Shown here: positions 2,314 to 16,865 of the stretch, in pieces
Layout of the letters: each line of letters opens with the position of its first letter
Position numbering within the stretch: position 1 is the stretch's first letter
Assembly: GCF_000519325.1 (NCBI RefSeq)
Contig: NZ_KI912613.1
Location: 3,693,126 to 3,726,354 of the forward strand
DNA length: 33,229 bases
Reading direction: 5' to 3'
Origin: Patulibacter minatonensis DSM 18081
GTDB lineage: Bacteria > Actinomycetota > Thermoleophilia > Solirubrobacterales > Solirubrobacteraceae
The notes under the pieces: generated by a model
What the model saw: only the letters and a program-made list of their open reading frames with translations
The model's database searches: none
Told to the model about the DNA's origin: nothing
Position numbers and translations under genes: made by a program

Positions 2314-3335
2314 GCGCCGCACCCGCACCGAAGCAGCGCCCCGGTCGCCCGGCGCCGCAGCGCCCGCCGCTGCGCTCGGTCCCGAAGCCCCGCCCGGCCC
2401 GTCCGCGGCCCGCGCCCCGGCCGGGAAGCCCCGCGACGACCCCGCTGGGCGTCCGGCTCGCCCTCGTCCCCGTCCGCCTGGCGCTCGTCCCGGTCCGCCT
2501 GCTGGCGGGGCTCCTGGCGCGCGCCACCGGCGGCCGCCCGTGGCTGCTCCTGATCCTCGCGCTCGGGTGCGGCGTCATCGCCCTGCACGCCGCGACGCTG
2601 CAGACGAACCAGGTGGTGGCGGCCCGGGACCTCGAGATCAACAAGCTGGAGCGCGAGACCGCGACGATGCGCAACGAGGTCGCGACGCTCGGCTCCACCG
2701 ACCGCGTGTCCGAGTTCGGGCGCGGCGCCGGGATGGTCATCGCGGACCCCGAGGGCGTCGGCTACCTGGACGCCCGCCGGGACGACGCCGCCCGCGCCGC
2801 CGCGATGCTCGCGCCGCCGAACCCCGACTGGAAGCCCGCCCCGAACCCGTCCGAGCAGAACGGCGACGTCGCGCCCGACGAGTCCGCGGGCGCGGCCCCC
2901 GGCACCGACGGCGCCCCGGGCACCGGGGCGGTCGCCGGCCAGGCGGCCACCACGGACCAGGCGGGCAACGGGGCCGGAACCGGCGCGGCGACCGGGACGC
3001 AGATCGCGGCCGGGACCACGTCCGGTCAGGGCACGTCCACCGCGGGGGCGGCCGCCGGCACCTCGTCGGGCGCCACCGGGGCCGGCACCGCGTCGGGCTC
3101 CTCGACCGGCGGCGGCACGTCGACCGGCACCGGGGCCACCGGCACGGGCGCCGCGTCCGGCGCGGCGTCGACGGGCGGCACGGGCACCGGGACCGGGACC
3201 ACCGGGTCCGGGTCGACGGGCGGCGCGGGCGCGACCGGGACGTCGTCCGGCACGGCCGGCACGACGGGGACGGCCGGCACGACCGGCACCCAGGGCTCCA
3301 CGGGCGGGGCGTCGGCCGGGGGCACCACCCCGTAG
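2310..3335 (+). CDS. ftsL: FtsL-like divisome membrane protein with long Gly/Thr-rich tail
   Basis: FtsL is a bitopic divisome protein that works with FtsQ/DivIB and activates FtsWI. Identification rests on position (rsmH-ftsL-ftsI) and layout. There is a basic Pro/Arg-rich cytoplasmic region (1-75) with a short internal repeat of LVPVRLA, one membrane span (about 77-97) and a short coiled-coil-like segment (about 100-128). A region with GMVIADPEGVGYL (141-153) follows. The remaining 145 residues or so are low-complexity Gly/Thr/Ala/Ser ending in GGTTP. FtsL proteins are normally about 100-180 aa, so this 341-aa form is unusual. A similar tail ends FtsQ in this cluster. The start overlaps the rsmH stop. 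Confidence 0.75.
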   Translation: MSAAPAPKQRPGRPAPQRPPLRSVPKPRPARPRPAPRPGSPATTPLGVRLALVPVRLALVPVRLLAGLLARATGGRPWLLLILALGCGVIALHAATLQTNQVVAARDLEINKLERETATMRNEVATLGSTDRVSEFGRGAGMVIADPEGVGYLDARRDDAARAAAMLAPPNPDWKPAPNPSEQNGDVAPDESAGAAPGTDGAPGTGAVAGQAATTDQAGNGAGTGAATGTQIAAGTTSGQGTSTAGAAAGTSSGATGAGTASGSSTGGGTSTGTGATGTGAASGAASTGGTGTGTGTTGSGSTGGAGATGTSSGTAGTTGTAGTTGTQGSTGGASAGGTTP

Positions 3336-15454: not shown

Positions 15455-16645
15455 ATGGACGCCACCGGCAGTTACCTCGCCGTCATCAAGGTCGTCGGCG
15501 TCGGCGGCGGCGGCACCAACGCCGTCAACCGCATGATCGACGCGGGCCTGCGCGGCGTGGAGTTCGTCGCGTGCAACACCGATGCCCAGGCGCTGCAGAT
15601 GTGCGACGCCGACATCAAGATCAACATCGGTGGTGAGGTCACGCGCGGCCTGGGGGCCGGCGCCAACCCGGAGGTCGGCCACGCAGCCGCCTCGGAGTCG
15701 CGCGACGAGATCCGCGACGCCCTGAAGGGCGCCGACATGGTGTTCGTCACCGCGGGCGAGGGCGGCGGCACCGGCACCGGTGCGGCCCCCGTCATCGCGG
15801 AGATCGCCAAGGGCGAGATCGGCGCGCTGACCGTCGGCGTCGTCACCCGGCCGTTCTCGTTCGAGGGCAGCCAGCGCATGCGCCAGGCCGAGGACGGCAT
15901 CAACCGCCTCCGCGAGGTCGTCGACACGCTCGTCGTGATCCCGAACGACCGCCTGCTCGGCCTCGTCGAGAAGCGCACGTCGATCCTCGACGCCTTCCGC
16001 TCCGCCGACAACGTGCTGCGCCAGGGCGTCCAGGGCATCACGGACCTGATCACGATCCCGGGCCTCATCAACCTCGACTTCGCGGACGTCCGGACCGTCA
16101 TGCACGACGCCGGCACCGCGCTCATGGGCATCGGCCAGTCCGGCGGCGAGACCCGCGCCGGCGAGGCCGCCAAGCAGGCGATCGCCAGCCCGCTGCTCGA
16201 GGACTCCGTCGAGGGCGCCACCGGCATCCTGCTGAACATCACCGGCGGCCGCGAGCTCGGCCTCTTCGAGGTCAACGAGGCCGCCGAGATCGTCCAGCAG
16301 GCCGCCGACGGCGACGCGAACATCATCTTCGGCGCCGTCATCGACGAGGACATGGGCGACGAGATCCGCGTCACCGTCATCGCCACCGGCTTCGACAAGA
16401 CCCGCGCGGCCCGCCAGGCCGCCACGAGCAGCTCGTCCTCGTCCTCGTCGGCCTCCCGGCCCGGCCGTGGCACCGAGCGGGACGACCGGGACCGCGATCG
16501 CGACCGCGGCGGCCGGAGCGAGCGCTCCGAGCGGCCACGCCGCGGCAGCCGCGAGGACGACCGCGCCCCGCGCCCCGGTCGTCAGACCGGCTCGTCGCTC
16601 GAGATCGGCGACGACGACATCGACATCCCGGCCTTCCTCCGGTAG
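15455..16645 (+). CDS. ftsZ: Cell division GTPase FtsZ
   Basis: FtsZ is the tubulin homologue that polymerises into the Z ring. The 396-aa protein has [13 protein letters not shown] (15-27), the tubulin signature GGGTGTG (103-109) and the T7 loop NLDFAD (206-211) that completes the GTPase site of the next subunit. The linker (about 323-383) starts with eight serines and continues with Arg/Asp/Glu/Ser-rich sequence. It ends in the conserved tail [10 protein letters not shown], which binds partners such as SepF or FtsA. No ftsA precedes it and no sepF follows it here. A weak CGGAGA lies 11 nt before the ATG. Confidence 0.98.
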
Positions 16646-16865
16646 GGGGCCGGGCCCCGACCCGAGCTTCTCGGGTATGGGGCGCGCAGGACTCCGGCGG
16701 GGCTCGGGCCACCCGGAGTGGGGCCGGGCCCCGACCCGAGCTTCTCGGGTATGGGGCGCGCAGGACTCCGGCGGGGCTCGGGCCACCCGGAGTGGGGCCG
16801 GGCCCCGACCCGAGCTTCTCGGGTACGGGGCGCGCAGGACTCCGGCGGGGCTCGGGCCACCCGGA
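16646..16865. repeat. Three tandem copies of a 74-bp hairpin-forming repeat
   Basis: Copies occupy 16646-16719, 16720-16793 and 16794-16865. The third ends two bases early and has one T-to-C change; otherwise they look identical. Each unit contains ACCCGAG-CTT-CTCGGGT, a 7-bp stem that can extend through flanking CCCC/GGGG. It also contains ACTCCGG/CCGGAGT, a second 7-bp inverted repeat. The period is not a multiple of three, so it is unlikely to encode a repeat protein. It fills nearly the whole ftsZ-gcvT gap, begins right after the ftsZ stop and may act as its terminator or mRNA-stabilising element. REP-like elements are an analogy only. Confidence 0.9.

What the first reader, a model, noticed from the sequence alone, without database searches (positions are those of the whole stretch)
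16646..16865. Triple tandem 74-bp repeat with two inverted repeats per unit after ftsZ
Three almost identical 74-bp units fill the gap between ftsZ and gcvT. Each can fold into two stems (ACCCGAG/CTCGGGT and ACTCCGG/CCGGAGT). Near-identity points to recent amplification or gene conversion. It may be a REP-like family, a transcription insulator, an mRNA 3' stabiliser or a protein-binding array next to a key division gene.
Basis: partly seen in the sequence, partly recalled or inferred. Interest (0 to 1): 0.65.

Follow-up and report, generated by a model that had tools for sequence, protein, structure and literature searches.

The report
Dispersed stem-loop repeats after stop codons
The three tandem copies after ftsZ belong to a family of about 75-nt repeats, found here only in the bacterial genus Patulibacter, that sit just after the stop codons of dozens of genes in the gene's own direction, fold as one conserved stem-loop, and probably mark or insulate the 3' ends of transcripts.

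Summary
In detail: three 74-bp units (99% alike) fill 16646-16865, directly after the ftsZ stop. They belong to a dispersed family. The complete own genome (one contig) has about 70-80 units in about 60 places, and 58 of 60 arrays follow a same-strand stop codon, 56 of them by 1-18 nt. Six of eight Patulibacter genomes carry clear copies (a seventh has one partial match, one none); other genera gave only weak hits. A blind covariation scan finds ONE long-range stem, CCGGG[CCCC]GNCCCGAGC-(33-39 nt loop)-GCTCGGGN'C[A]CCCGG; the local hairpin scores no better than shuffles. The arms are shared across carriers, but one species (G006) has an unrelated loop of its own. About 20 orthologous sites are shared between species (about 1 expected); within-array copies are 96-98% alike, different loci 75%. 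Sites avoid within-operon junctions and lie between convergent stops or before the next gene; at sepF and ftsZ, relatives without the element often have an unrelated strong hairpin there. Most likely a 3'-end/terminator-insulator hairpin with REPIN-like architecture and no RAYT transposase. Function is inferred, not shown.

The parts
16646..16719 (+). unit 1 (74 bp)
   Evidence: TRF; own-genome family match
16720..16793 (+). unit 2 (74 bp)
   Evidence: TRF
16794..16865 (+). unit 3 (72 of 74 bp, one substitution TATGGGG to TACGGGG)
16650..16654 (+). unit 1: 5' arm of outer helix P1 (CCGGG), pairs with 16712-16716; units 2 and 3 at +74 and +148
   Evidence: covariation (closing pair C-G/G-C/A-U exchange)
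16655..16658 (+). unit 1: conserved CCCC side of the asymmetric internal loop (A at 16711 opposite)
   Evidence: conserved in all carrier species
16659..16667 (+). unit 1: 5' arm of inner helix P2 (GACCCGAGC), pairs with 16702-16710
   Evidence: compensatory changes
16668..16701 (+). unit 1: apical loop (34 nt), replaced by an unrelated sequence in species G006
16702..16710 (+). unit 1: 3' arm of P2 (GCTCGGGCC)
16712..16716 (+). unit 1: 3' arm of P1 (CCCGG)
15455..16645 (+). ftsZ, the gene whose stop codon the array follows
   Evidence: Pfam FtsZ_C/Tubulin; ORF
   Evidence: ORF; identity of the product not tested here

Best explanation
The array is three tandem copies of a dispersed RNA-level 3'-end element of Patulibacter. 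Each unit is transcribed as the first part of the 3' UTR, just after the stop codon, and folds into one long stem with a conserved asymmetric internal loop (CCCC opposite A) and a 33-39 nt apical loop. The stem most likely ends or insulates the transcript: a U-tract-less terminator, or a hairpin barrier at the 3' end, that separates a gene from the next one or from a convergent gene. Tandem copies would act as a hairpin cluster. Shown here: sense orientation, stop-codon adjacency, transcription-unit-end placement, covarying stem, dispersal within the genus, shared sites, array homogenisation. Inferred: that the stem forms in RNA and that it ends or insulates transcription. Unknown: how copies reach new sites.
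For: Arrays follow a same-strand stop in 58 of 60 own loci (56 within 1-18 nt) and in 36 of 42 sampled relatives' arrays, against 7% of random positions within 70 nt; orientation binomial p 3e-15. Codirectional sites avoid operon-type junctions: 2 of 36 have under 40 nt to the next gene beyond the element, against 38 of 71 control junctions (p 5e-7). At 20 of the 24 convergent sites 34 nt or less remains to the opposing stop, so hardly any other terminator fits. Stem: the top MI pairs of a blind scan all lie in it; 91.8% of cells paired, covariation score 0.191 against 0.064 in shuffles (0/500), slid versions 0.041 or less. At sepF-proC the element is in G000, G001 and G002, while G004, G005 and G006 have sequence-unrelated simple hairpins (-19 to -23 kcal/mol) after the stop; at ftsZ, G001, G003 and G004 have hairpins of -32, -18 and -19 instead. 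Hairpin clusters without U-tracts, close to stop codons, are reported as intrinsic terminators (PMC8355165).
Against: There is no U-tract. At 10 of 34 codirectional sites another strong simple hairpin lies beyond the element (controls without the element 4 of 22), and at ftsZ2 the element precedes a hairpin that also follows ftsZ2 in G007, which lacks the element, so it is not always the sole terminator. Control gene ends are not clearly more or less structured. Single-sequence folding favours P2 in only 22 of 47 own units. At ffh, some relatives without the element have no strong hairpin close to the stop. No RNA data exist here.
Confidence: 0.5

Rival explanations
1. A REPIN-like non-autonomous mobile palindrome with no host function: two inverted conserved arms and a freely changing spacer, copied by an unidentified enzyme through a folded single strand and tolerated only just after genes at transcription-unit ends.
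For: Architecture equals the REPIN description (two inverted repeats separated by a highly diverse spacer, hairpins in ssDNA or RNA; PMC8049555). Copy number differs strongly between species (95 to 0). G006 copies share a loop of their own. A truncated remnant at sepF in G007. Stop codons beside elements are TAG in 31 of 58 against 15 of 70 controls (p 2e-4), which could be a target or boundary effect.
Against: No Y1/RAYT transposase in any of 8 genomes, a reverse transcriptase in only one. Mere tolerance does not predict 58 of 60 in one orientation or stop distances of 1-18 nt. About 20 shared sites between species against about 1 expected show long retention.
Confidence: 0.28
2. An mRNA 3' stabiliser: the stem blocks 3'-to-5' exonucleases after termination elsewhere, or marks where processing stops.
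For: Position inside the 3' UTR upstream of another strong hairpin at 10 of 34 codirectional sites, including ftsZ2; unit folding energy about -44 kcal/mol.
Against: At most convergent sites there is hardly room for a separate terminator. The genes are a mixed set.
Confidence: 0.15
3. A DNA-level site: a protein-binding or cruciform array, for example for nucleoid or chromosome organisation.
For: The stem is near-palindromic, so covariation could also serve DNA hairpins; tandem arrays.
Against: The strict sense orientation and adjacency to stop codons point to transcription; pair exchange with free change of letters is not expected of a sequence-read binding site.
Confidence: 0.06

Closest known systems
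REP / REPIN elements with RAYT transposases
   Same: Dispersed, extragenic, two inverted conserved arms with a diverse spacer, hairpin-forming, tandem clusters; REP sequences are reported to affect termination and mRNA half-life (PMC8049555).
   Different: No Y1/RAYT gene in any of 8 genomes; almost always in sense orientation 1-18 nt after a stop codon; conserved CCCC/A internal loop; no fixed tetranucleotide 5' of the arms in alignment A2.
MIRU of Mycobacterium tuberculosis
   Same: 40-100 bp tandem units scattered over about 41 places, copy-number variable (PMC2734929); from memory also oriented with the flanking genes and abutting stop codons.
   Different: Here a covarying stem-loop, placed at transcription-unit ends and not inside operons; the 74-bp unit is not a multiple of 3.
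Neisseria DNA uptake sequences in terminators
   Same: Repeats conserved within each species, with dialects between species, often as inverted pairs associated with terminators (PMC3630211).
   Different: DUS are short (about 10-12 bp, from memory) and number thousands per genome; here about 70-80 units of about 75 nt with a long loop; no link to DNA uptake tested.
U-tract-less clustered-hairpin terminators
   Same: Hairpins singly or in clusters close to the stop codon without poly-U (PMC8355165).
   Different: Those are not a sequence family; here the arms are conserved across dozens of genes.
Integron attC sites
   Same: Imperfect stem with unpaired bases directly after a stop codon in gene orientation (from memory).
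   Different: No GTT/AAC core sites in the arms; elements follow dispersed housekeeping genes and not a cassette array.

Membership tests
REPIN / REP (RAYT-mobilised) | two inverted conserved repeats with a diverse spacer, able to form a hairpin | tested here: met
   arms conserved and covarying, loop unrelated in G006
REPIN / REP (RAYT-mobilised) | RAYT (Y1_Tnp) gene in carrier genomes | tested here: not met
   PF01797: 0 of 8 genomes of the genus, controls ring in 5 of 14
REPIN / REP (RAYT-mobilised) | fixed tetranucleotide 5' of the hairpin (from memory GTAG/GGAG) | tested here: not met
   columns 5' of the arm are variable G-rich letters, though TAG stops are enriched nearby
Intrinsic terminator | GC-rich hairpin just after the gene at the end of a transcription unit | tested here: met
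Intrinsic terminator | U-tract after the hairpin | tested here: not met
   element passes a hairpin-plus-T detector in 1 of 60 arrays
Intrinsic terminator | transcripts end there | not testable with these tools
   needs RNA 3'-end mapping
Rfam family | match to a described RNA family | tested here: not met
   no match in the ftsZ array even at E up to 1
attC | GTT/AAC core sites in the arms (from memory) | tested here: not met
   arm consensus CCGGG..GNCCCGAGC
MIRU | located within operons, coupled to the flanking genes (from memory) | tested here: not met
   within-operon junctions avoided, p 5e-7; unit of 74 bp

The most novel reading that the evidence does not exclude
Patulibacter has a dispersal or homogenisation system without RAYT that places a structured element after stop codons in sense orientation and keeps a species-specific loop under conserved arms, so that orthologous genes of different species (for example rlmH in G001 and G006) carry the same stem with different species loops: a mobile or gene-converted 3'-end module with dialects.
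Probability: 0.3. Interest if true: 0.75.

Novelty: new variant of a known kind. Interest (0 to 1): 0.5.

Why it matters
Very GC-rich bacteria often lack U-tract terminators, and how their transcripts end is open. A genus with a sequence-recognisable, covarying 3'-end element on about 60 genes, in variable copy number and present or absent at the same gene in sister species, is a natural experiment for that question. It also raises the question of how a REPIN-like family can spread, in one orientation and at stop codons, without a known transposase.

Tried and rejected
Rfam: nothing relevant. RAYT and a general reverse-transcriptase route are not supported. Viral contigs: one exact-pattern scan, none. 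Weak hits outside the genus: two of three were read (L167, L168) and appear to lie inside coding sequence; the third (L169) was not read. A U-tract terminator detector finds almost nothing at any gene end here and general folding z-scores do not separate classes, so neither argues for or against. A first arms-only scanner was too permissive and was tightened. Literature: no description of such a family in Patulibacter was found among open-access papers.

Full report
Check of the observation. The three 74-bp units are at the stated place, 16646-16865, 99% alike, between ftsZ and the next gene. The own genome is one contig of 5,521,807 bases, so repeat collapse or false joins are unlikely, and a relative (G007) has its own array of 2.5 units at the same gene.

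A dispersed family. BLAST of the array against the own genome gave 18 other places at 75-89% identity. A sequence-only model built from 20 units gave about 79 units at E<0.01, grouped in 60 arrays; a structural model gave 70 matches at E<0.01. In 40 relatives only the own genus had matches: 17, 65, 1 (a partial match), 95, 0, 4 and 71 copies in G001 to G007. In a draw of 399 genomes of the class three genomes outside the genus gave weak single hits; two of these were read and appear to lie in coding sequence. A structural search of 232 genomes of the order found only the genus, with none in G003 and G005. The genus is Patulibacter by the titles of records with exact matches.

Where the copies sit. 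In the own genome 58 of 60 arrays lie downstream of a same-strand coding frame, 56 with the stop codon 1-18 nt before the conserved CGGG (median 10); random positions have such a gene end within 70 nt in 7%. Codirectional sites are not operon junctions (2 of 36 with under 40 nt beyond the element, against 38 of 71 controls, p 5e-7); at 20 of 24 convergent sites 34 nt or less remains to the opposing stop. Upstream genes examined are a mixed, largely housekeeping set: ftsZ, sepF, Lon, ffh, FKBP, pyruvate kinase, aminopeptidase and others.

The structure. A mutual-information scan over all column pairs of the sequence-only alignment put 9-95, 28-83, 19-88 and 22-85 on top, all nested in one stem. 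Counted on the alignment, that stem has 91.8% paired cells and a covariation score of 0.191 against 0.064 in shuffles and 0.041 or less in slid versions. The stem is CCGGG[CCCC]GNCCCGAGC-(loop)-GCTCGGGN'C[A]CCCGG. In single-sequence folding the local hairpin competes in part of the units. The covariation alone cannot tell RNA from folded single-stranded DNA, nor, in tandem arrays, pairing within a unit from pairing between neighbours; single-copy loci show the same pair exchanges, so there the within-unit form is the one available.

Evolution. Units within an array are 98.5% alike in the own genome and 95.7% in relatives, against 74.7% between own loci: local amplification and homogenisation. 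Twenty orthologous site pairs are shared among the sampled species, one of them between the ftsZ paralogues, where about one is expected; at shared sites the arms are more alike than in random pairs (0.91 against 0.85) but the loops are not (0.75 against 0.74). In G006 the arms are the family's but the loop is unrelated (identity 0.59-0.61 to other species, shuffled 0.55-0.57) and alike within the species (0.69). rlmH carries an element in both G001 and G006 with different loops (gene name from my reading of the protein, not from a family search). At sepF-proC three species have the element, G007 has what looks like a deletion remnant, and G004, G005 and G006 have unrelated strong hairpins at that place (proC is my reading of the start of the downstream protein).

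Reading. Placement, orientation and replacement by unrelated hairpins point to a 3'-end or insulator function at RNA level; the lack of a U-tract and a second strong hairpin beyond about a third of codirectional copies leave room for a stabiliser role. The architecture is that of REPINs (PMC8049555), but the defining transposase is absent from all 8 genomes searched. No description of the family was found in Rfam for the tested stretch or in the open-access papers searched.

Limits. Gene ends were called by a simple codon-usage model of my own. Sites in relatives were sampled from the best-scoring matches, and several genomes are fragmented or incomplete. The stop-codon, downstream-hairpin and shared-site statistics were chosen after seeing the data.

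Noticed in passing
own-genome element sites: The stop codon next to elements is TAG in 31 of 58 cases against 15 of 70 control genes (p 2e-4), most strongly at distances of 7 nt or less; no explanation.
   Followed up: partly
L021/L109, L018, window 16646-16865: Three of about 60 elements follow division genes: ftsZ, a second ftsZ-like gene and sepF. Seen after the fact, may be coincidence.
   Followed up: partly
L023:1002-1081: One copy does not follow a stop; it appears to lie in the N-terminal part of an opposite-strand reading frame, a possible insertion into a gene.
   Followed up: no
L242 (G007, after sepF): GGGGCCGGGCCCCGGAGGGG looks like a remnant left by deletion of an element between short repeats.
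   Followed up: partly
ends of arrays, e.g. L015, L070, L071, L072: Arrays often end in a partial next unit (about the first 10-20 nt), so the 3' arm and the following 5' arm could form an alternative tight hairpin at unit junctions.
   Followed up: partly
G004 contigs C2, C4, C5, C9, C17, C20: Several contigs of G004 begin or end within or close to element arrays, so arrays probably break assemblies and copy numbers there are lower bounds.
   Followed up: no
window 3053-3289: Other tandem repeats of 9, 27 and 63 bp, overlapping several predicted reading frames.
   Followed up: no
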